A DNA stretch of 64,000 nucleotides from Chondrosia reniformis (taxonomy: Eukaryota; Porifera; Demospongiae; Chondrillida; Chondrillidae), in NCBI GenBank assembly GCA_947172415.1, contig OX359194.1, forward strand, positions 3,844,001 through 3,908,000, given 5' to 3'. Below, one piece after another: positions 38,323-52,652 of this stretch (within the stretch, counting starts at the first letter, position 1; the number at the start of each line of letters is the position of its first letter). Made by a program: the position numbers and the translations under genes. The notes under the pieces are model-generated. The model did not search any database and had not been told where the DNA came from. It saw only the letters and a list, made by a program, of their open reading frames with translations.

Positions 38323-38446
38323 TACCGTAATTCGGGAAATTTTCGTTGTTAAAATATTTTAACACGAAATATTATTAACAACGAATAATAACATGTTGTA
38401 CAATCTACGTATATATGTAAACGCAACACAGCTGAGCGCGGCCAAA

Positions 38447-40118
38447 ATGGCTCTATTGCGATACCTGCAGCGCAAGGACGGTTTACCGGACCCAAAGGGC
38501 TCACTTTCGTCCAAAGTACCAGCAGCAACAATCGTTCATCCGAATCAGGAAGTGCAGGCAGCGTCGGAGACGGATACGCAGGTAAGGGAGGGAAGGAAAC
38601 GTGGCGCATACCATCACTACAGCCCCGGAGATCGGGCCACCATTGGGAGGTATGCTACACAATATGGTGTGGCTGCAGCAGCAAGGCTCTTTTTGAAGAA
38701 GATGAAGAGAATGGTATGCGAAACTACCGTACGATCGATCAAGGCTGCGTACGTGGAAGAGGTGCAACAGAAGAGAGGTGGTCCTGTTGCCGGAGACATA
38801 ACTGTACTACCTTTACAAAAGCGCGATAGACCAGTTTTGCTTGGCTCTAGTGTTGACATAATGGTTCAAAAGTATCTGAAGAAGGTGAGAGATGAAGGAG
38901 GGTTGTGTCTGCTAGAATTGCATGGCAGCTGCAAGGGGCATTTTGTTGAGTTGTGATAAAACAAAACTGGTGGAATTTGGTGGACATGTGCAGCTCAACA
39001 TACACTGGGCCTATGAGCTATTAAAGCGTATGAAGTTTGTCCAGAGAAAGGCAACCACTGCCAAAAGCAAACATGCTCCAGTGGATTTTGCAACACTTAA
39101 GAAGTCGTTCCTTGCTGATGTGGTTGCTACTGTCACAATGGAGGAAATCCCTGCAGAAATTATTTTGAATTGGGACCAAACAGGTATTAAGATTGTACAA
39201 TCCTCTGCATGGACAATGGAACAAAAGGGCGCAAACCGAGTAGAGATGGATGGCGTCAATGACAAACGTCGGATCACAGCCATTTTTTGTGGTGCTCTTT
39301 CAGGTGATTTCCTTTCAGTGCAGTTAGTTTACAAGGGGAAGACGTCACGGTGCCACCCTCACTTTGAGTTCCCCTCCGGATGGCACATTGCTCACTCACC
39401 AAAGCATTGGTCAACTGAGCAGACCATGCTGCAGTATATTGAGCACATTATTCTGCCTTATGTGAAGCAGGTGCGTGAAAGACTGCACCTGGGTGATGAT
39501 AAACCAGCGGTCGCAATTATTGATAATTATAAGGGGCAGATCACAGAAGCTGTCACCAGCCTTCTTGAGACCAACAATGTCCATGTTTGCTTGCTACCAC
39601 CCAACACCACTGATCTTCTTCAGCCCATGGATATTGCGGTCAATAAACCAGCAAAGGACTTCCTGCGCAAAGAGTTCCAGCAGTGGTACTCGGAGCATGT
39701 AATGAAGCAGCTGGAAGGGCAGGACATCACTGATATTGAGCAAGCAAAGCTTCAGCCTATTGACCTGGGCTTGCCAGGCCTAAAGGAGATTGGAGCTAAA
39801 TGGCTGGTGGACATGGCAAGCTACATCAGTGATAACCCCCAGTTCATAGTCAATGGGTTTATACGTGCAGGAATTACAGGAGCTTTGGATGCCCACTACA
39901 ATGTAGACCAGCCTAATGCAGGGACTGGTGACAGTGATGAGACAGAAGAGGAAGAGACAGATGATGAAGAGGCAGTGATTAATTTAATTTCAGAAGAGGA
40001 AGAGATTGATGATGAAGATGAGCACGAGTCAGATGAGGAAGACAATGTTTATGAAGATGATCATGGGGCAGTGGTTGAGTTAGAGTCAGAAAAAGAGAGT
40101 GACTGTGAAAAAGCTTAG
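38447..40118 (+). pseudogene. pogo-like (DDE_1) transposase A, frameshifted
   Basis: ATG at 38447. The N-terminal part has YSPGDRATIGRYATQYGVAA, a helix-turn-helix-like region, to about 38895. The frame then shifts over a short interval (VVSARIA in one frame, AAARGILLSCDKTKLVEFGG in the next). The catalytic domain is open and complete: ILNWDQTGIKI (first Asp), AVAIIDNYKGQIT (second Asp), TDLLQPMDIAVNKPAKDF (third Asp), as in DDE_1/pogo/Tigger proteins. The C-terminus is very acidic (ETEEEETDDEEA and similar). The usual family length of 500-560 residues fits. Only about two frame changes separate it from an open gene, so this copy is a recent loss. Confidence 0.87.
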
Positions 40119-40310
40119 TGACTGGCAACTTCTAGACATAGCTACCATGGACTTAAATTCACTTAGTTACTGATGTATAATGCACTTTTAATTTTCTAGC
40201 ACAACATGAAACACTCTCCATCATGACAGATCTAGAATTAAGTGTGAGTAAATTCAAATAGAACACAGACAACAGTGTGCATGCATATGCATGGTTTAAT
40301 AGGTTGTAAG

Positions 40311-40658
40311 CTACTTCAATAACTGCTTGAGTTTCTTCACTTCTTTAGACTTAGCTGTAAACTTCACTAAACACGGAATCTCGAGGCCTCCTTGAGGTAG
40401 ATCGAAGGAATACCATCGTCTTCCAGTGACAGTACACTGAATGCTTCCTTCTTGCCTCAGAAAGAGTGAACAAATGCGGGAAATCTTCTTTGGCAAGTGT
40501 CTGATCACCGTCGCGTCTTTCTTCACCGCCACAGCGTACCTGTCCTTAGCGTTTCCTGGTTCTCTTTCACAGTCAAGCACTTCCCCAACAGCCGCAATCC
40601 ATATGTCGCGATACACGTGAAAGCCGCGAACACAGAGATCCCTTTCGTAATCCTCCAT
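40311..40658 (-). CDS. HIRAN-domain protein carried by pogo-like element A
   Basis: Intact 115-residue frame, ATG at 40658, running toward the transposase (192-bp gap between stops). The sequence shows the HIRAN pattern RGFHVYRDIWIAAVGEVLDC, then GNAKDRYAVAVKKDATVIRH, LPKKISRICSLFLRQEGSI, CTVTGRRW and GLEIPCLVKF, ending in Lys-rich KSKEVKKLKQLLK. HIRAN domains (HLTF/Rad5 N-terminus, also free-standing) bind DNA with free 3' single-stranded ends. A diverged homologue occupies the same place in the other pogo-like element (50559-50170). The role in transposition is unknown; end recognition or repair of the excision gap would fit. The domain call rests on motif resemblance by eye. Confidence 0.8.
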   Translation of the reverse strand: MEDYERDLCVRGFHVYRDIWIAAVGEVLDCEREPGNAKDRYAVAVKKDATVIRHLPKKISRICSLFLRQEGSIQCTVTGRRWYSFDLPQGGLEIPCLVKFTAKSKEVKKLKQLLK

Positions 40659-40937
40659 TTCTCAACGTAATTATGTAATGTGTATAAATTTTCGTGGTTA
40701 TATATTTTAGTGGTAGCCCCCAGACCACGAAAATATTTTAACATGAAAATTTTTTCCACGAAAATTTCCCGAACTACGGTGTGTATAATTGTGGTCAATA
40801 GTGTGATAAAATGTTTAGTTAGCTTTTATGAAACCACAACTGTCTAATTTCATGTGCAATGTATATGAAGAGGAAGATTTTAAAGCTACATCTAGACCTT
40901 GAAAGCTTTTGTTTCAACAATAATATACTGAAATGTA

Positions 40938-41008
40938 TACCCAATTCCTAGTACAAGTTTAAACACTTGTTTCGCCCAATACCAGGGCTCATCAGCTAGG
41001 ATGGGGTA
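40938..41008 (-). ncRNA. Hammerhead ribozyme, type I
   Basis: Read on the minus strand from 41008. Outer helix I TACCC pairs with GGGTA and inner helix I CCTAG pairs with CTAGG, separated by an internal loop. The core CTGATGA is at 40995-40989. Helix II is GCCC/GGGC with a 7-nt loop, followed by GAAA. Helix III is ACAAGT/ACTTGT with a GTTTAA loop. The cleavage triplet is GTA, with the predicted cut between 40952 and 40951. All invariant core positions are present and all three helices pair without mismatch, so this fits the hammerhead consensus fully. Such ribozymes occur in Penelope-like and other retroelements and in retrozymes. No flanking gene identifies the carrier here. Confidence 0.88.
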
Positions 41009-41410
41009 ATGTGGCTTAACTTTTGCAGTGTTGGGCTTCGAAAAAAAAACAATACTGTATATAGGTCTGGAACTTTGCATGGTCAATGGTCTAGTGGATG
41101 TTCTATATTATTTTATATATTTTTATACAGTACAATATTTTTATTATTATTATTATTAGGCATGCCTGGCTTATCTGGAAACTTGGGATAAAGGATAGCT
41201 GATTTGGGAACAGAATTATGATTGTCAATTGTGATCTTCAATAAATGCATTTATTAATGTGCTTTTAGATTTGAAGGTCGAAAGTCAAGAGTCATGTTTA
41301 CTTATCTGACTCTTGATCAAGACTTTTAAGGAATTCTTGAATATAGACTTCATCAATACCATATTGAAGCAATTCTTCAGTATCATTCTGAGTTTATATA
41401 CGTATTAGTT

Positions 41411-41715
41411 ATACCACGGCACTGAGGTGTATATGGGTTTTATATGTATGAGTCACAAGGGTGAGTACGTAAAAAACCCATATACACCGAAGTGCCGTGG
41501 TATGAGTGATATATACTCTATAGCTTCTTATCGTTATTTTGGTGGGACTTTCAGGATGGCTCATTGGGCGTCTGGTTAGTTTGGCTTAAACACTGACGAC
41601 TTTATAGAATGCTCTTGCCCTGACTACTCCTGCCCTGACTACTCCAACTGCCCTAAATATAAGGAGAATTGTCTACCCTCCAAGTAGAAATGTCTTAGTT
41701 TACCATATTTGGGCA
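41411..41715 (+). repeat. Dispersed repeat C, copy 1
   Basis: It begins with a hairpin (ACCACGGCACTGAGGTGTAT and its inverse around a 35-nt loop), then GAATGCTCTTGCCCTGACTA and AAGGAGAATTGTC. Copy 2 is at 44213-44520. Probably a non-autonomous DNA element. Confidence 0.8.
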
Positions 41716-42044
41716 GGGATATAACAGGATTTAAGAAAATGATGCAGTATATAGCTTCTTAAATCCTGTTATATCACGGGTATGAAATTTAAACACAGGC
41801 GGTTGCCCCGGCAACGGAGTATATGTATATACATAAATCCTTTAAACAACCATAATACAGCCTGAGTACAACCTTTACTGTTTGCCACTATAGTAGTGTA
41901 TATAGTAGTCACTTAGTCTTGTATATACTCACTTGCCATTTTTAAGAGGTCTGGCATAGGCCGAGAACTCTTCCACCCTCACTTAAACGACTCCTTATTT
42001 GGGCAATCAATAACCTCAAAAATGCAATAAATAAAGTTATTAAA

Positions 42045-42330
42045 GTAGTAATAGATAATGAATTTCTTTTTCTGTGCCATCAATCAGATTCGCCAGGAGA
42101 CTTACAACCACTACAGTACTGGTTGTCGACTTGCGCATTGCGTTATACAGCGAACATAGATAAGCGTCTTCCCGAAACCAGTTGGAAGCGAAACAAAAAC
42201 GTCTTTCCCTTTGCCAAACTCCAAAACAGTCTCCAACTGCTTGGGTTTTACGTTTGCATATCCTTTTCTTGAAGCCGCTTCCCGAATTAAGACAGAAAGC
42301 GCTATCATCCGAAGGTCATCCGTTGTTTGA
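42045..42330 (-). pseudogene. RecQ-like helicase scrap (Walker A exon)
   Basis: The minus-strand reading SRKGYANVKPKQLETVLEFG then KGKDVFVSLPTGFGKTLIY has the Q-motif and Walker A of a RecQ-type DEAD helicase. The frame leaves the family right after TLIY, at a possible GT donor. A weak continuation (VVVVSLLANLIDGTEKEI) appears at 42105-42050. No later motifs are present, so this is a fragment of a host or element-borne helicase gene. Confidence 0.55.
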
Positions 42331-42599
42331 TCTGAATTCACACCTGGCTTACGTCATCGATTAACATTCCTCAGTGTTTGTATGCATTCCAGAACATTAA
42401 CGAATTCACATATGCATATAGCTCCACTGTGTTGCGCTACAGTGCATAATTAACTAGGCAGGCATATGCAATACGCAAACACATGCCTTGCAATGGACAA
42501 TGGAAAATCGATCGAATTGGCTTAGCTGCTTGCTCAAGGTGCTGTATATTCAGGAAAAAATATAAAAAGCACCTGATGTGGGCCTCGAATTTGTGGCTA

Positions 42600-42660
42600 T
42601 ATACAGTACAAGTTACAATATACTAAGGTATATATATATATATACTTGCACTGTATATAC
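42600..42660. repeat. Repeat A, short palindromic copy
   Basis: CAGTACAAGTTACAATATAC and its inverse TATACTTGCACTGTATA around a TA tract; the tips of repeat A joined head to head. Confidence 0.65.
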
Positions 42661-42714
42661 ATAGGAAAATCTCGAACAGAACACGATCACGCTCGCAACA
42701 AGTGTACATCTTAC

Positions 42715-42942
42715 TTGACTTTGTGTCCTTTGTGCGACATCCGCAAATGTTTCACTTTTTAAGGGTGCTTCGGAATTAGATTTTGAATCCTTTGTTTTCT
42801 GGCGACCTTTACCCTTTTTAGATTTGTAGTTAGTAGTCTGTATAAAAGAATAAAATTAATTGAAAGGTAATTTCATATGAAATTTTTTAACCTTTCTCTG
42901 TTTAGGGGCCAGTTCTTCAGTTTCCTTGTTCTCTTTTTCCAT
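42715..42942 (-). CDS. Possible 5' exons of a small lysine-rich gene
   Basis: Exon A (42942-42892) is ATG plus 16 codons, MEKENKETEELAPKQRK, ending before GTTAAA. Exon B (42837-42715) follows a TATACAG acceptor, is in phase, and has 41 codons including NYKSKKGKGRQKTKDSKSNS and SETFADVAQRTQ, ending before GTAAGA. No further exon in phase was found; a repeat-A copy lies just downstream. The family is unknown. The composition suggests a nuclear or RNA-associated protein, which is only a guess. Confidence 0.35.
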
Positions 42943-42959
42943 AGTAAAATCTAACTTAC

Positions 42960-43672
42960 ACCAATTCAGACTAAAAACTGATGAAATGTATAGCATATGA
43001 TAATATGAATATCATTATGCTATGATATGAATATCATTATGCCATGATAAAAACTATAAAAGGATCATGGTCGGTTGCATAAAATCATTATGACTATTAG
43101 TGAAGAGAAGCAAAGTTTGATATAATACTGAAATGCAAGGATTTGCATGCTTACTCTGTAGAGATAACAGCACTAGCTAATTTTGTCTTAGACAAAGTGA
43201 AAGGAAAACAATTTTCAGTGCACGAATGTGATGTAAGGGTTTGGTTAACAGTATTGGACTTTGAATTTCAGCAGTTTGATGGCAAGAGTTTCCTGATTCA
43301 ATCCCATATCATCTTGGCTTACACATTAATGGATGCAGCTTTTAATCTGTTTGATATTTCCTTATTGCTTAATCTCAAGCAAATGTTCTACATTTGCCTC
43401 TACATTTCATATACATACATTTGCAATGAAGTAACATATCCAGTCTGGCCCTTTTTAGTGGAAAAGAAGAGATCAACTAGTGAATTCTGGGGAAAATGTC
43501 TTGCAGTGTCTATGAGTGGAGTGATGATGAAAGCTAACACTGATCATCTGTATTATAAATTTTTACATAATTGGTTGCTAACATATTTATAACATTACAT
43601 TTTTTGACTCTAATTCTTAGATTTATAATGCTTTGTTGCATGGTAATTGATATATATATATACATATATATA
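42960..43672. other. AT-rich stretch, weak open frame only
   Basis: Plus-strand frame 43143-43592 is open for 149 codons but has no ATG start, is hydrophobic and AT-driven. Only its end (SEFWGKCLAVSMSGVMMKAN) looks protein-like. I do not call it a gene. Confidence 0.3.
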
Positions 43673-43829
43673 GTTTTATACCCTAATCTTTATGATGATA
43701 TGCCCATTTTGTTTCTAAGTCCTTTCTTGGAGCCATATGAATTAATTAATTATATTATATTATTTATATTATATTATATTATATTATATTAGATTACCTT
43801 AGTATATTGTAACTTGCACTGTATATACC
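43673..43829 (+). repeat. Repeat A, copy 2
   Basis: It matches 4108-4257 over its full length, differing mainly in the number of ATATT units in the centre. Confidence 0.8.
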
Positions 43830-43894
43830 AACATAAGTTGAAACATTTGTTACTTATGAAATTCAGTTAGCTGCTGCTAAGCATTATAAAAGAA

Positions 43895-44208
43895 CAAGTA
43901 TTTTGAGTTGAAAAATTCGTTGGGCGCCAGGCACCCCTAAGTATAAACTCAAACTACTTGGCTGATTCTCATAGATATCCGGTTATATAACTGATTTCTG
44001 GTCGACTCTTGTTGGCCATCAATTTTTCAAGGCCATATCTCACAGAAAACATTTTTTGCACAAGCTTTACGTTACATAGTATTATTATAAGGGTGGTTTC
44101 TAAATCGTTTTCGTTAGTTCAACATTCGACGCAAAGGAAGAGAAAGCTAATTTTAAGCTAGAAAACGAAAGCCAGCTGAGCGTCTGCCATTATGGTGACA
44201 GATATATA
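43895..44208 (+). repeat. Repeat B, copy 4
   Basis: It matches copy 1 from the GGGCGCCAGGCACCCC head to GAAAGCCAGCTGAGCG. The terminal foldback is missing; a copy of repeat C begins a few bases later. Confidence 0.8.
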
Positions 44209-44212
44209 TAAT

Positions 44213-44520
44213 ACCATGGCGCTGAGGTGTATATGGGTTTATACACCAGAGGGCGAGTGCGTATAAAATCCATATACACCGAAGCACTGTGATATGAGTG
44301 ATATATACTCGGTCGCATCTTATTATTATTTTGGCAGGACTTTTAGGATGGCTCATCAAGCATCTGGGTGGTTTTGCTTAAACACTGATGACTTCATAGA
44401 ACATAGACAGTTGGAGTATATAGTCAGGGCAAGAGCATTTGAATGCTCTTGCCCTAACTAATCCAACTGTCCTAAATGTAAGGAGAATTGTCCACCACCC
44501 AAGAAGAAACATTGAAGAAT
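44213..44520 (+). repeat. Repeat C, copy 2
   Basis: It begins with the hairpin ACCATGGCGCTGAGGTGTAT / ATACACCGAAGCACTGTG and runs to GAGAATTGTCCACCACCC. It also has an inner inverted pair AAGAGCATTTGAATGCTCTT. Confidence 0.8.
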
Positions 44521-45435
44521 TAATTACAGATTTAGGAAATGTTTCAAAATTACTACAAAGTTTATTAATATATAGTTAATAAACGTCTTTACTGCAGTAG
44601 AGCAAACTTGAACAAGTTTCGGTTAAATTCGTAGACTTTCCTCAGCCAATAGTAATTATAATATTCAACTATCATATATCAAACGTAGCAATGAATCCTT
44701 ACTCTGTTGCATGTTACATTGGATATATTGTTTTGAAAACCCTTTTTTGATAGTCTTCCTCTTCAAAAAATGCAACTGCATCATAGAATTTATTTTCAAT
44801 TTTTGTATTTTAATCATGACTGCATGATGACTCAAGTAACCAAAACCAAAACTCCTACACCTGGTAAAGCATTCTATGTTTTTTATATATTTGTGCATAG
44901 ACTAGTCGAATCATATACAGATCGACCCTCATTTATCTATGGTTAATGTTGGATTGAGGTTGCCAACGCACATCGTTTTTGATGTCCATATCTAAATTTT
45001 GTATGTAGAGTGTTGCTAAAATTTGAAACAGACAATGAGGATATTTTTAAATTTCCTTTATCTTTAAGGGGCAATGATGAGGCATTGAATGAAGACTGGT
45101 ACTTCAATGTAGTTAAGTTAGTAGATGCATGAATGCAGCTGGAATGTTTTCTTTATTAAGTGCCTTGATCAAGTTGTGTGTCCATTGTGTTGAAATTACA
45201 ACAAACTATAAAATTATAAAAATAAAAAATATATGGCAGAGCAACATTACGTCAGTGAAAATGATAGATTAGATTATATGGATGTCTATAAAACTCTTGT
45301 CCTGCATCCCCTTCAGAATTTTTCACACTCCTATATAGGGATAAGTGGGAACTTAACAGTATATTTTATAAAAGGATAGTGATACAAAGCATGCAAATGT
45401 TGATATCAGATTTTGTGTCTATGTGTGGAGAAGAA
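44521..45435. other. Intergenic stretch, no gene seen
   Basis: AT-rich sequence without recognisable coding segments or repeats. Confidence 0.5.
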
Positions 45436-45439
45436 AGTA

Positions 45440-46010
45440 TACATATATATTTGAGTGCTGCCAGTAGAAATCACTTCAGCTCCAGCTCCGATATGTTTTT
45501 CACCTGCTTAGCACCCATGCAACTTCTGCCAATGAATCCTCCTGCAACAAGTAATCATCTTCTTCATCCGGCCTCCCTTGCCATATACTTTACTGCCTCC
45601 ACTGCCACTCTTCCCTATAGCCTCCTATCATACACCTTGCTTAACAACACTCTGAACCAAAAAACAGTTCAACGTAATCTTGCCAACCACACCGCTGGCA
45701 GATCCCCCATTTCTAATAATAATGACACACAAACCTCTAAATTCCAAAAGCACCTCCAAATCTCAGCTCCAGAATGAGAACATATCAGCTTCTTGAACAC
45801 CCTGATACCTACATCGCCCACTTTTACTCTGCCCCACTGAAATCAAGCCCCCAGAACCTTCTTCCCTGCCACCACCTTGTCTGTACCGTATCCTTAAGTC
45901 TGAGAGCTCATCCACCACACAGCTTAAGTACTTGTAACAGCTCACCATTGGAATCTTCTTGCCATCCACCATGTACCTTTTCTCAATTCTTATCTGATTC
46001 TTCTTCCTGA
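45440..46010 (-). pseudogene. LINE reverse-transcriptase C-terminal scrap
   Basis: Minus-strand readings such as KKIPMVSCYKYLSCVVDEL (compare the YKYLG box after the reverse transcriptase palm), GQSKSGRCRYQGVQEADM and AEIWRCFWNLEVC are spread over more than one frame with several stops. GC content is higher than in the flanks. It is a decayed LINE tail; the clade is not assigned. Confidence 0.5.
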
Positions 46011-46024
46011 TATGCTATATATAA

Positions 46025-46717
46025 TTATAATATAGAACGGACAACTTCAAAATGATTTAGAGGATGTTGAAGGTATATTGACATTTGACTGAAATTGTCT
46101 ACTATAGCATTATCAAGGGCATGGGGACAATATCTTGCCCACATTTTACTAGGTACATCATATGACAGTACACTTGTCTGTAATAAATGAGAAAACACCA
46201 ATATCTCTACATAAGTGCCCCAAGTTTTATCTTTATCCATTTGGGTTTTGTAAATGTACTCATTCACACTGGTTTCAGTTATATGAGGACCAATTAATAG
46301 ATGGCCTATAGTGTACATGTGACTGATAATTATCTCATGTATTTTCATGTGTTGGTTTTCTACTCCTGTTAAAACATAAGAAAAAGTTCTAAATAGACAA
46401 TTTCCATCTCCTTGAATGCTTTTGATGTTATATGGATTAGGAGGACCAAGAGGGGTGTTAAGACTACCAGGAGAGACTCTATCCATCTTTCTAAATGAAA
46501 GCTTAAGTTTTGAGCATGCATTACATCTCCACTCTTCATTTTCTTGGAAGTATTTTAATGGACTTCTATAAATGATATAATTGGTGGTTTTTCTACAAGT
46601 TGCATCATTTTTTTGGGCTTTGACAACTTTGCTATTGTTGACCTTTTTCTTTTTTGCTGGAGGCTTAGTTGTTTGAATAAAAGCATTATTTAAAATTGGA
46701 GATAATGATTTACTCAA
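46025..46717 (-). pseudogene. OTU cysteine protease domain of the Helitron protein
   Basis: It continues the helicase block after one frame change. After a basic linker (KPPAKKKKVNNSKVVKAQK) and a possible finger (WRCNACSKLKLSF), the OTU domain shows NIKSIQGDGNCLFRTFSYVL (catalytic Asp-Gly-x-x-Cys) and ends with the catalytic His in LNHFEVVRSI. OTU peptidases are known in some Helitron/Helentron proteins; their substrate there is not established. The domain itself is open. Confidence 0.8.
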
Positions 46718-46718
46718 G

Positions 46719-47595
46719 TCATGGAATTAGTTTTGCTACTGGTACCTTAATATCATCTCTAGAAATTAATTTATATTTCGTAGAACGTCTAGAAAAAGCT
46801 GGTATTGAAAATAAAGGAAGATCCTTTCTATATGTTTGCCTAAGTCGATTTACTTCTTTCAAACAGTTTATACTGACTTTAACTGACTGTGAATTAAAAG
46901 TAGTCAGATAAATACCTGCAAGTGATCTTACACGAGACAAAGCAACATAAGCTATACCAGGAGCAAATATTAAATTTGACAAATCAACGATTGCACAGTC
47001 AAGTGACAGGCCTTGACATTTATGAATAGTAATAGCATAAGCTAAAATAAGTAGAAATTGTTTCCTGTCAATGTGGAAATTTTGAATAAGTGTAAAACGA
47101 CACTTAACCATTTCTACATGGTAAGCTTTGTCAAGGTGATCAAATTTTACAGTGATGTAATCACAGTTAATAGCTTGAACAGAACCCAAGGAACCATTGA
47201 CTAATCCAATTTTGGTATCAATATTACGTCGTAACATAACACGAGCTCCTACAGCTATAGAAAGGGTAGCTACTAAACCTGCTGTTAAACTGCAGTTAGA
47301 TTTTAGTTTTTGTAATCGTTTTACTCCATTTTTTGTCCACTTAGTTGTACTCATTGTCTCATCAACTTTGTCAATACATGGAATCTCATGCATTTCAGAT
47401 GTTAGATGTGTTGGCATTGTAATATTAAAATCATCACACTGTTTTCTAGTGGGAAAAAGACAAATAGGTCTCTTTTTGATGGTTTGAAGTTCTTCAAAGA
47501 GCTCTATTATAGGTTTCTCAATAACCTTTTGTTGAAGTACTGTTTCTATGTTTTCTGTCAACTGACCACACCTTATAGCGTCTAATAGACATGAT
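46719..47595 (-). pseudogene. Pif1-like Helitron helicase, C-terminal half
   Basis: The reading LLDAIRCGQLTENIETVLQQ begins at the satellite boundary. The later helicase motifs are clear: GARVMLRRNIDTKIGLVNGS, then QFLLILAYAITIHKCQGLSL (motif V) and GIAYVALSRVRSLAGIYL (motif VI). This is the Pif1/RecD-like helicase used by Helitrons for rolling-circle transposition. The frame ends at a TGA near 46720 where the OTU block continues in the +1 frame. Motifs I-III are absent, so it cannot be active. Confidence 0.82.
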
Positions 47596-47597
47596 GT

Positions 47598-48808
47598 ACA
47601 AGTAATTAGTTGTATGTATAGGTACTAGTTGTATTTACTAGTTGTATGTACTAGTTGTATGTACAAATTGTAAGTACTAGTTATGTACTAGTTGTAGGTA
47701 GCAGCTGTAGGTACTAGTTGTATGTACAAGTTGAATGTACCAGTTCTATGTACTAGTTTTAAGTACTAGTTGTAGGTACTAGTTGTATGTACTAATTGTA
47801 TGTCCAAATAACTAGTTGTATGTACTACTTATAGGTACTAGTTGTATGTACTAGTTGTATGTATTAGTAGTATGTACTAGTTGTGTGCACTTGTAGCTCT
47901 CTGTGTGTACTAATTGTGTGTACTAGTTGTATTAACTAATTGTGTGTAATTGTATGTACTAGTTTTATGTACTAGTTTTATGTACTAGATAGTAGTAGCA
48001 TATACTAGTTGTGTACTAGTTATAAGTTCTAGTTGTATGTACTAGATGTGGTAATTGTTGTATGTATATACTAGTTATATTTAGTAGTTGTAATAACTAC
48101 TTGTATGTACTAGTTGTATGTAAAAGTAACTAGTTGTATGTACTAGTTGTATGTACTAGTTGAATGTACTAGTGATTAGTTGTTTGTACTACTTGTATGT
48201 ACTAGTTGTAAGGAGTAGCTGTATGTACTAGTTGTATGTACCAGTTGTGTGGACTAGTAACTATCTCTATGTACTAAAAATCTGTAATACTTGTATACAT
48301 ATAATATTTGTGTTGTTATATTTACTACTTGTACATACTTGTTGTGTGTAATTGCTGTATGTACTACTTATATTTACAAGTAGTAGTTACTAGTTGTATG
48401 GACTAGTTTTATGTATTAGTTGTATGTACAAGTAATTAGTTGTATGTATAGGTACTAGTTTTATGTACTAGTTGTGTGCACAAAATGTATGTACTAGTTA
48501 AGTACTGGTTGAAGGTCCTATTTGTATGTAGTAGTTGAATGTACTAGTTGTATTTACTAGTTGCATGTACTAGTAACTAGATGTATTTACCAGTTGTATA
48601 TACTAGTTGTATGAAGTAGATGTAGTTACTAGTTGTAAGTACTAGCTGTATGAACTAGTAGCTATCTGTATGTCGTAGTTGAATGTACCAGTTGAATGTA
48701 CTAGTTGGAAGTACTCTTAACTAGTTGTATGTTCTAGTTGTATGTACTAGGACTAGTCATATGAACTAGTTGGAGGTTCTAGTTGTATGTACTCAATTCT
48801 AAGTAATA
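47598..48808. repeat. ACTAGT satellite, block 1
   Basis: Tandem, degenerate units with consensus ACTAGTTGTATGT (13 bp; 10-12 bp variants common). Frequent variants are TAGTTGTAGG, GTGTGTAATTG and ACTAGTAACTAG. Near its right end it carries the marker phrase TACTCAATTCTAAGTAATAG, which recurs in the other blocks. The block ends where pogo-like element B begins. Confidence 0.95.
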
Positions 48809-48811
48809 GCC

Positions 48812-50073
48812 AAGGCTCACACAGATGCAGAGGTTGCCAAACACTTGCATCCCGAGAACCACTCTGCGTGCCTGGAAGGGATTGGAGCTGCAACCTAAAG
48901 ATAGAAAGATAAGCCAGAACAGAAAAGGGAAGCATGTTCAAAAGGGAGCACATTCTGGACGACTATTGTCTTATAATGAAGACATTGAAGATCAGTTGCT
49001 TCAATGGATATTAGAAGCTCGGGACCAGCAGCTGCCAATTCAACGTAAAGCTATCCAAAGGACAGCATTGGCACTGATCCAGCCTCAAAAGTCACAGTTT
49101 CGAGCATCGGAAGGGTGGTTGCAGAAGTTTCTGAATCGCCATTCGTTATCCCTTCGGCGGACCACGTCAATTCAGCAGAAATTGCCTGCTGATTTGGAGA
49201 GGAAATTGGAACGATTCATGCAGGATGTTAAGGCTCTGAGAGAATGCTACAAATTTCCAGATCATCTTATTATCAACATGGATGAGACACTGATATTTTT
49301 TGATATGCCAAGAGCACAAACCATTGCCAAGACTGGTGCCCGTGAAGTGCGAGTGAGAGGCACAAAAGGAGGAAAAAGAGAGTAACATTTGTTGTTACGT
49401 GCTCAGCCGCAGGACAGATGCTGAAACAAATGGTGATATTCAAGGGAAAAACAGCACGTTCCCTGAAAACAGTAAAAAAGAGGAGTGACACTGTCATTGG
49501 ACATCAGAAGAAAGGCTGGATGGACCGTGCTCAGATGCTTACATGGATCAGGAGGTCCTTTTAAAGTACACCAAGAAGAAGCACTGTCTCTTGGTGTTTG
49601 ACTCCTTCAAGGCTCACTTCGTGGATGATGTCTTGCAAGCTTTGAAAAGAGCAAATGCATCAAATGTAGTGCTTCCAGGTGGCTGCACTAGCAAAGCACA
49701 GCCTGTGGATGTGTCCCTAAATCGGCCAATCAAAGACACAGTGAGAGGCCTGTGGGAAGAGTTTATGACCAGCAACATGGCACAAGGCCCAGTCAGTGAG
49801 GCACCCGCTCCGACAAAGGATGATGTAGTGGATTGGATCATCAGGGCTAATGCACTACTTGACTCACAACCACAGTGTGTCACTAAATCATTCAAAGTGT
49901 GTGGGATCTCAAACAATCTAGATGGGTCCGAGAACGCCCTGGTTCACTGTGCAAAGGAACTTCCTGCCTTTACCATACCATATGGTAATGACGACAGCGA
50001 TGAAGACATTTTCAACAGTGACAGCGATAGTATTAGTGACAGTACTAGTGATGATGAAAATGAGGACAAATGA
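48812..50073 (+). pseudogene. pogo/CENP-B-like (DDE_1) transposase B, broken
   Basis: The first codons (AKAHTDAEVAKHL, then PRTTLRAWKGLELQ after a frame change near 48855) form the Psq-type helix-turn-helix. A CENP-B-type DNA-binding domain follows: NEDIEDQLLQWILEARDQQL, EGWLQKFLNRHSLSLRRTT. The DDE_1 core shows LIINMDETLIFFDMP (first Asp), a frame change near 49381, VTFVVTCSAAGQMLKQMVIF, another break near 49540, HCLLVFDSFKAHFVDDV (second Asp) and TSKAQPVDVSLNRPIKD (third Asp). The tail is acidic and Ser-rich (DEDIFNSDSDSISDSTSDDE). It has three or so breaks and lost its 5' end. Confidence 0.85.
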
Positions 50074-50169
50074 CTATGAACTTACCATTGGCATGCACAA
50101 AATTTTCCTTGCATGCATTAAACTGTTAAAATGTATTACATGTATTTAGTTTCCTATCCTATATATGAG

Positions 50170-50559
50170 TTAATGAAAACCTTTAATGCATGAAAACTGT
50201 TGAGCATCAAAGAACCTCCTAAGTTTCTGAATGTGCTTTTGTTTTCCAGAGAAGGTTAACTTGCATGGAATCTCCATTCCTCCTCTTTCATGACAGTATC
50301 GCCTCCTGTCTGTCACCCTACCAGTGATACTGCCATCATGCTCTAAGAAAAGGAAGGAAACTCGCTAAAATTCTCTTGGAAGGTGCCCAAGAACGTCGTT
50401 TGAATCTCCACCTCCGTACACTGCAACAGCGTGGATGTCGTGTTCATTGGCCCGTTCTTGGTAGCAGACGAATTCTTCCCCGACTGTCGGCGCCCAGGAA
50501 TCTTTGTAAATGTGATACCCTCGAACTGCTGTCCATATGGTGAGTTCAAAACCCGCCAT
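50170..50559 (-). pseudogene. HIRAN-domain protein carried by pogo-like element B
   Basis: ATG at 50559. It reads AVRGYHIYKDSWAPTVGEEF, then ANEHDIHAVAVYGGGDSNDV, LGHLPREF, one in-frame TAG (50367-50365), then RVSFLFLEHDGSITGRVTDR, GGMEIPCKLTFSGKQKHIQK and LRRFFDAQQ, to a stop at 50170. It aligns along its whole length with the intact HIRAN protein of element A (RGFHVYRDIW, AVAVKK, HLPKKISR, GSIQCTVTGRRW, GLEIPCLVKF). The stop sits where element A has an isoleucine (KISR). Otherwise the frame is open, so the domain was kept under constraint until recently. Confidence 0.8.
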
Positions 50560-50727
50560 TTCGTCTCAAAAAATGCCCCTAGGTTTAGCCGTCCGCTCTA
50601 ATGTTTCGTCGAAATAATCTTAATATTCATCACCCTCGGCCAGCTTGTTCATTCCAACTCTATTTGTGACCAAGTAACGAATTTTCCTGGACAAAGTTAG
50701 TGACGAATCTTTAGAGAGAATACGGTA

Positions 50728-52652
50728 GTTATATTTACTAGTAGTAGTTACTAGTTGTATGTACTAGTTGTAGTTACTCGTTGTATGTAATAGCTTTATG
50801 TACTAGATGCTAGTGGTAGGTACTAGTTGTAATTACTAGCTGTGTGTACTAGTAACTATCTGTATGTACTAATTGTATGTAATAGTTGCATGTACTAGTT
50901 GTTTGTAGTTTTATATACAACTTGTATGTACTAGTTGTGGGTAATTGTAGTATGTACTAGTTATATTTACTAGTTGTATGTACCAGTTGAATGTACGTTC
51001 TAGTTGTATGTACTAGTTATATGTACTAGTAATTAGTTCAATGTAATAGTTATATGTACTGGTTGAATGTACGTTCTAGTTGTATGTACTAGTTGTATGT
51101 ACTAGTAACTAGTTTTATATACTAGTTAGATATACTAGTAGTATGTACTAGTTATATGTATTAGTTATATGTACTACTTTTATGTACTAGTTTCATGTAC
51201 TAGTTGTAACTACTTGTAACTTTCTTTATATACCAATTGTATGTACTAGTTATAGGTACCTATTACTTGTATGTACTAGTTGTGTCAATGGTGCTATGTA
51301 CTAGTTATATTTACTAGTTGTAGTTACTAGTTGTTTGTACTAGTTGCATGTACTAGTAACTAGATGTGTGTACTACTTGTATGTACTAGTTGTTTGTACT
51401 AGGTGCATGTACTAGTAACTAGATGTATGTACTAGTTGTATGTACTAGTTTACTATACTAGTAACTATAGGTATGTACTAAATGTATGTTCTAGTTCTAT
51501 GATCTAGTTCTATGTAATTATATGTACTACATGTATGTTGTAATTATTGTATGTACTAGTTGTATGTACTAGTTGTAGGTACTAGTTGTATGTACTAGTT
51601 GTATGTACTAGTTGTATGTCCTAGTAACTAGTAGTATGTACTAGTTATATGTACTAGTTGTTTGTATTAGTAACAATCTGTTTTACCAGTTCTATGTACT
51701 AGTTTTATGTACTATTTGTATGTAGTTATATGTACTATTCGTATATACTAGTTATATTTACTGGTGGTAGTTACTAGTCATATGTACTAGTTATATGTAT
51801 TGTTGTAGGTAGATATGTAGGTAGATATGTGTACTACTTGTATGTACTAGTTGTGTGTAATGGTTGTATGGACTAGTTATAATTATTACTAGTTGTGTGT
51901 TCCAGTTGAATGTAGTTATATATACTAGTTGTAGGTACTAGTTGTGTGTAATTGTGTATGTACTAGTTATATTTACTAGTAGTAGTACTAGTTGTAGGAA
52001 CTAGTTGTCTGTACTGGTTGTGTGTACTAATTGTATGTGCTAGTTGAATGTACTAGTTGTATGTAGTAGTTGAATGTACTAGTTGTATGTACTAGGACTA
52101 GTTATATGAACTAGTTGGAGGTTCTAGTTGTATCTACTCAATTCTAAATAATAGTTTCATGTTCTAATTGTATGTATTAATTGTAAGTACTATTTATGTT
52201 CTAGTTGTATGTTCCAGTTGTATGTAGTAATTCTTTATACTAGTTATGTACTAGTTGTAGGTACTGGTTGTATGTACTAGTTTTATGTACTAGTTATGTA
52301 CTAGTTGTAGGTACTAGTTGTATGTACTAGTTTTATGTACTAGTTGTGTGTACTAGTAACTCGTTGTATGTACTAGTCATATGTACTAGTTGTAGGTACT
52401 AGGTGTTTGTTCTATTTGTAAGTAGTAGTTGTGTGTAATTTTTGTATGCACTAGTTATATATACTAGTTGTAGCAACTAGTTGTGTGTACTATTTGAATG
52501 TACAAGTCCTATGAACTAGTTCGAAGTACTAGTTTTAAGTACAAGTTGTAGGTACTAGCTGTTTGTACTAGTTTTATGTCTTAGTAAATAGTTGTAAGTA
52601 CAAACTGTATGTACTAGTTATGTACTAGTTGTAGGTACTAGTTGTAGGTACT
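50728..52652. repeat. ACTAGT satellite, block 2
   Basis: Same unit as block 1. The marker phrase (TACTCAATTCTAAATAATAG, then TTCATGTTCTAATTG) is at about 52135. The block ends at the LINE junction. Confidence 0.95.

What the first reader, a model, noticed from the sequence alone, without database searches (positions are those of the whole stretch)
38325..50725. Two diverged pogo-like transposons each carry a convergent HIRAN-domain gene
Seen: element A (38325-40779) and element B (48810-50725) both have a DDE_1 transposase on the plus strand and, between its stop and the right terminal repeat, a minus-strand gene of similar length (115 and about 129 codons). The two small proteins align end to end (RGFHVYRDIW/RGYHIYKDSW; AVAV; HLP; GSI; GLEIPC/GGMEIPC) although the transposases differ strongly. 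Known: HIRAN domains bind DNA with free 3' single-stranded ends (HLTF). Inference: the HIRAN protein is a shared, long-kept accessory factor, perhaps for end binding or repair after excision. I know of no description of a pogo-type element with a HIRAN partner.
Basis: partly seen in the sequence, partly recalled or inferred. Interest (0 to 1): 0.85.

Follow-up and report, generated by a model that had tools for sequence, protein, structure and literature searches.

The report
Pogo transposons carrying DNA-end-binding HIRAN partner
In this unnamed eukaryotic genome most members of one clade of pogo/Tigger-type jumping genes carry a second gene, for a small HIRAN-domain protein that was inherited together with the transposase and kept by selection, and that likely grips the free 3' ends of DNA cut during transposition; it would then be a helper that lets the element handle its own breaks in the face of the host repair machinery.

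The parts
38324..38358 (+). left terminal inverted repeat of element A, beside a TA
   Evidence: ends compared
38393..38956 (+). transposase N-terminal part of element A (187 codons), out of frame with the DDE part
   Evidence: the same two parts form one 584-codon frame in the C14 copy
38922..40118 (+). DDE_1 catalytic part of the element A transposase (35 residues between second and third D, acidic tail)
40311..40658 (-). intact HIRAN gene of element A, 115 codons, convergent with the transposase
40746..40780 (-). right terminal inverted repeat of element A
   Evidence: the TA seen at the left end is not intact here (CA on the strand read inwards)
48825..49385 (+). element B transposase, N-terminal part with HTH_Tnp_Tc5 and the first catalytic D
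49543..50073 (+). element B transposase, DDE_1 part, in another frame (35 residues between second and third D)
50170..50559 (-). HIRAN gene remnant of element B, 129 codons with one in-frame TAG
50678..50727 (-). right end of element B, starts TACCGTATTC like A-lineage ends; inner border approximate; no matching left end found

Best explanation
These are two-gene pogo/Tigger-type DNA transposons whose second gene encodes a free-standing HIRAN-domain protein that likely binds the free 3' ends exposed when the transposase cuts, and would thereby shield the transposition complex from host remodelers and end resection until the element is rejoined. Shown by calls: the gene pair lies inside the terminal repeats, the two genes diverged together, and the HIRAN gene was under purifying selection between lineages. 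Predicted: the HIRAN fold and a partly kept pocket. Inferred: 3'-end capping, by analogy with the isolated HLTF HIRAN domain, which acts as a dominant negative and keeps HLTF from removing Cas9 from cut ends (PMC11237066). In the main clade the two genes start back to back (142 and about 110 bp apart in the two elements measured), so they would share one promoter region, and the transposase often ends in a PCNA-binding motif, so the pair would act near replication forks, where HLTF-type remodelers work.
Against: 20 of 68 clade transposases, and 10 of the 44 that are 880 bp or longer, have no detected HIRAN within 2 kb; one of them (C9:2148586) has an open frame of 577 codons, and one lies in a fetched locus (second transposase of L041) where I saw no HIRAN frame. 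So the gene may be dispensable. Only 11 of 39 A-like loci have it in the A layout. HLTF Y93, which stacks on the DNA (PMC4666394), is not kept; Y72 aligns with A/V, although a neighbouring Y is invariant; that loop has pLDDT about 63. N90, half of the HLTF double mutant, is not kept. The nearest SNF2 match lies 20 kb from a HIRAN match, so I could not show that this host has HLTF. A-lineage transposases lack the PIP-box. No binding or transposition data exist.
Confidence: 0.48

Rival explanations
1. Fork targeting: the HIRAN protein binds 3' ends of nascent strands and brings the PCNA-binding transposase to replication forks, choosing when and where the element inserts, rather than protecting cut ends.
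For: [quoted passage not shown]
Against: A-lineage transposases have no PIP-box (0 of 48 full-length relatives) although this lineage keeps HIRAN, so the pairing does not need PCNA. PIP-boxes are recorded for pogo, Tigger and Lemi1 in general.
Confidence: 0.25
2. Regulator or packaging factor: the small protein binds the transposase or the terminal repeats and works as a DNA-binding or nuclear import helper or as a repressor, with no use of the 3'-end pocket.
For: Small second proteins that help the transposase are known from other superfamilies (recalled: Myb-like protein of PIF/Harbinger). Correlated divergence fits a physical partnership.
Against: The kept N, D and H of the pocket are not explained by protein-protein contact alone, though they could also be kept for the fold.
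Confidence: 0.2
3. Passenger gene: a host HIRAN exon was captured once and has been carried along without use.
For: 20 of 68 clade loci and 27 of 39 A-like loci have no HIRAN nearby; internal deletion copies lose it freely.
Against: dN/dS of 0.11-0.20 between lineages and presence in transposase lineages only 18-28% identical to each other.
Confidence: 0.05

Closest known systems
pogo/Tigger superfamily (IS630-Tc1-mariner group)
   Same: DDE_1 catalytic domain, CENP-B and Tc5 type helix-turn-helix domains in the C clade, TA beside the ends, PIP-box in the C clade
   Different: elements of this group are usually described with a single transposase gene (recalled); here a second gene encodes a HIRAN protein. 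A text search of two pogo surveys (PMC7325037, PMC7386202) finds no 'HIRAN'
HLTF / Rad5 HIRAN domain
   Different: free-standing protein of about 115-140 residues without SNF2 or RING part; Y93 not kept; found inside transposons
Two-gene DNA transposons such as PIF/Harbinger with a Myb-like helper (recalled)
   Same: transposase plus small helper in one element
   Different: another superfamily and another helper fold; here a predicted end binder rather than a sequence-specific binder

Membership tests
pogo/Tigger superfamily | DDE_1 (PF03184) catalytic domain | tested here: met
   A 3.8e-15, B 5e-8; L003 2.2e-38, L034 6.6e-40
pogo/Tigger superfamily | DDxD catalytic triad | tested here: met
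   three D found; 35 residues between second and third D in A and B, 32 in L003, L034, L021; the C14 copy of A has Y for the first D
pogo/Tigger superfamily | CENP-B_N / HTH_Tnp_Tc5 DNA-binding domains | tested here: inconclusive
   HTH_Tnp_Tc5 in B (1.7e-15) and in L003, L034, L021; no such Pfam match in the A-lineage N-terminus
pogo/Tigger superfamily | terminal inverted repeats flanked by TA | tested here: met
   TACAGTsGAACCTC ends in the C clade, TACCGTA-type ends in A and L015; A's right TA is not intact. The end patterns used began with TA, but the ends of L025 and L015 were also found without them. Element B: left end missing
pogo/Tigger superfamily | C-terminal PIP-box (recorded for pogo, Tigger and Lemi1 in PMC5371812) | tested here: inconclusive
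   C clade 39 of 79 strict, 62 of 79 relaxed; A lineage 0 of 48
HIRAN domain (PF08797) | match to the curated model | tested here: met
   12 of 13 members at E <= 0.01, best 7.8e-10; A alone 22.4 bits, under the 24.7 cut-off; 70 genome matches over the cut-off
HIRAN domain (PF08797) | HIRAN fold | tested here: met
HIRAN domain (PF08797) | binding of single-stranded 3'-OH ends | not testable with these tools
   pocket residues N91, D94, H110 kept, N90 and Y93 not

The most novel reading that the evidence does not exclude
Transposons have domesticated the end-recognition domain of the fork remodeler HLTF as a free-standing 3'-end cap: a natural dominant-negative HIRAN that keeps host remodelers from stripping the transposase off its own breaks, paired in the main clade with a PCNA-binding transposase so that transposition is run from replication forks. 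The pairing is old, spans transposase lineages under 30% identical, and occurs in genomes beyond this one.
Probability: 0.3. Interest if true: 0.85.

Novelty: new variant of a known kind. Interest (0 to 1): 0.72.

Why it matters
Cut-and-paste transposons of this group are generally thought of as one-gene elements that leave end handling to the host (recalled). A kept partner with the fold of a 3'-end binder would be a transposon-encoded factor acting on the break itself, could give a natural tool to hold off HLTF-type remodelers (of interest for Cas9 end processing), and offers a direct test of how pogo elements use the replication fork. It also extends the HIRAN domain to eukaryotic transposons.

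Full report
What is in the window. Element A spans 38324-40780: inverted ends of 35 nt, 86% complementary, a DDE_1 transposase on + (E 3.8e-15), and a minus-strand frame of 115 codons at 40311-40658 that matches Pfam HIRAN at 1.1e-4, 22.4 bits, below the curated cut-off of 24.7. The transposase of the window copy is broken (two frames), while the 96% copy on contig C14 reads as one 584-codon frame; that copy has its HIRAN frame split and Y in place of the first catalytic D. Element B has the same gene order but is a ruin: two transposase frames, a HIRAN frame of 129 codons at 50170-50559 with one TAG, and only a right end (TACCGTATTC..., 50727) that starts like A-lineage ends; I found no left end.

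How common it is. The window lies in an unnamed 117.4 Mb genome of 15 contigs. The HIRAN model gives 70 matches and the A protein 149; with extra hits I merged them into 164 HIRAN loci (every match and every one of the 53 one search matches that I checked is in the merged list). Counts are lower bounds because the tool scores only the best candidates (115 of 378, 104 of 215, 150 of 319). A search with the L034 transposase gave 117 matches, merged into 97 loci. Of the 68 at 45% identity or more, 48 have HIRAN within 2 kb; of the 29 below, none. The 45% line was drawn after I had seen the table. With the hits alone the count was 44 of 68. Among 95 other DDE_1 places, which partly overlap those 29, 1 has HIRAN within 2 kb and 2 within 2.5 kb; Fisher p for 48 of 68 against 1 of 95 is 6e-24, treating copies as independent. 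Conversely 78 of 164 HIRAN loci lie within 2.5 kb of a detected transposase and 86 do not; at most 1.6% of the genome lies that near. Against obligate pairing: 10 of the 44 clade loci of 880 bp or more have no HIRAN nearby, among them C9:2148586 with a 577-codon open frame.

Layouts. C clade: HIRAN in front of the transposase on the other strand (47 of the 48 loci). In L021 the two start codons that I took are 142 bp apart, in L003 about 110 bp. D family (mostly contigs C3 and C4): 15 loci have a second HIRAN behind the transposase on its strand, and one locus has only that one. Copies from both sides match the same 52-residue query at mostly 90-98%, which suggests that HIRAN lies in a long terminal repeat; the DNA was not read. 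A lineage: HIRAN convergent behind the transposase in 11 of 39 A-like loci (9 of the 22 above 150 bits), and in front in one more; B has the A layout. Seven fetched elements besides A have both genes between two ends that begin with TA, 2247-2971 bp long: L034, L039, L023, L025, L040, L021 and L015. The patterns used began with TA; the ends of L025 and L015 were also found without them. Short elements with HIRAN and no transposase exist too: L032 and L011 (791 bp each), L008 (458 bp), and many A-derived MITEs keep only the ends.

Inheritance and selection. Over 20 loci with both genes (162 of 190 pairs had enough overlap; near copies are included and raise the value), HIRAN and transposase identities correlate with r 0.84; none of 5000 label permutations reach it. 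In midpoint-rooted trees A, L015, L038 and B stand apart from the C and D elements for both genes; L009 and L020 do so in the transposase tree and are too short for the HIRAN tree. Between the deep lineages HIRAN is better kept than the transposase (A against B 45% and 25%, A against L034 36% and 24%); within the A lineage it is not (A against L015 64% and 69%). Of 23 HIRAN pairs 9 are saturated; the 5 usable between-lineage pairs, which share members, give dN/dS 0.20, 0.11, 0.19, 0.17 and 0.16; the 9 near-copy pairs give 0.31 to 2.15. The transposase shows the same pattern: 0.12, 0.13 and 0.08 between lineages, 1.11 for A against its C14 copy, 9 of 13 pairs not computable. This is what is expected of a gene that mattered while elements moved and that decays in dead copies. 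The method (Nei-Gojobori) is crude at these distances.

Transposase. C-clade proteins look like ordinary pogo/Tigger transposases (DDE_1 and HTH_Tnp_Tc5 in three of three scanned, CENP-B_N in two). Of 79 full-length relatives 39 have a strict PCNA-interacting motif in the last 25 residues and 62 a relaxed one; the rest of these proteins, about 40,700 residues, holds 0 strict and 32 relaxed. Of 10 loci of this genome scanned downstream of the transposase, L034, L023, L017 and L040 show it before a stop; some of the others are cut short. A-lineage relatives have acidic tails and none of 48 has the motif. PMC5371812 (passages seen) says that pogo transposase was found to interact with PCNA and that the motif is conserved in Tigger and Lemi1, so the motif itself is not new.

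Other genomes. 3276 protein clusters match the HIRAN profile at E <= 1e-5; the 120 listed are mostly about 130 residues long. One of them, P0005, is at best 69% identical to anything found in this genome, so the family lives elsewhere too. Six long contig lengths are shared by the HIRAN and the transposase lists, 0.005 expected; sharing a long contig does not prove adjacency, and one of the six may be this genome or near kin. The only listed transposase hits that bear an organism name are from Oscarella lobularis (2 of 120), a sponge (recalled), so the host may be a sponge or relative; I did not settle this.

Mechanism. PMC11237066 (abstract passages and the HIRAN section read) reports that the HLTF HIRAN domain binds the released 3' end of a Cas9 break, that HLTF needs it to remove Cas9, and that the isolated wild-type domain acts as a dominant negative, inhibiting Cas9 removal and end resection, while the N90A-N91A form does so much less. 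The transposon protein is such an isolated domain, encoded by an element whose transposase also makes breaks. I therefore propose that it caps 3' ends in the transposition complex. Shown: gene pair, correlated divergence, selection. Predicted: fold, part of the pocket. Inferred: end binding, shielding, benefit to transposition. Fork targeting and plain regulation remain rivals.

Novelty. No paper that my searches listed describes HIRAN in a eukaryotic transposon by its title or the start of its abstract (listings only), and a text search of PMC7325037 and PMC7386202 finds no 'HIRAN'. The library holds open-licence papers only and no preprints, and Repbase was not available. I rate it a new variant of a known kind.

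Noticed in passing
window 46025-47561 (-): Pif1-type helicase (2B domain) and OTU protease frames side by side, as in Helitron remnants of animals (Helitron recalled).
   Followed up: no
window about 48600-48800 and 50730-50880: Tracts of degenerate ACTAGTTGTATGTA repeats flank element B and turn up around other elements such as L038, L039 and L040.
   Followed up: no
genome contigs C3 (about 2.75-4.18 Mb) and C4 (about 3.3-3.9 Mb): A family of elements with a HIRAN gene on each side of one transposase, clustered on two contigs; most of their transposase frames show one TAA.
   Followed up: partly
L032:3660-4450, L011:5099-5889: 791-bp elements that keep both ends and only the HIRAN gene; L032 and two HIRAN copies of L011 break at the same model position 65.
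   Followed up: partly
L041:4399-4748: A-lineage ends and transposase start lie between the HIRAN and the transposase of a C-clade element, as in a nested insertion.
   Followed up: no
window 33088 and L036:3229-3678: Another repeat family with TACAGTGGGCCCTGGTTTAACCGAC ends.
   Followed up: no
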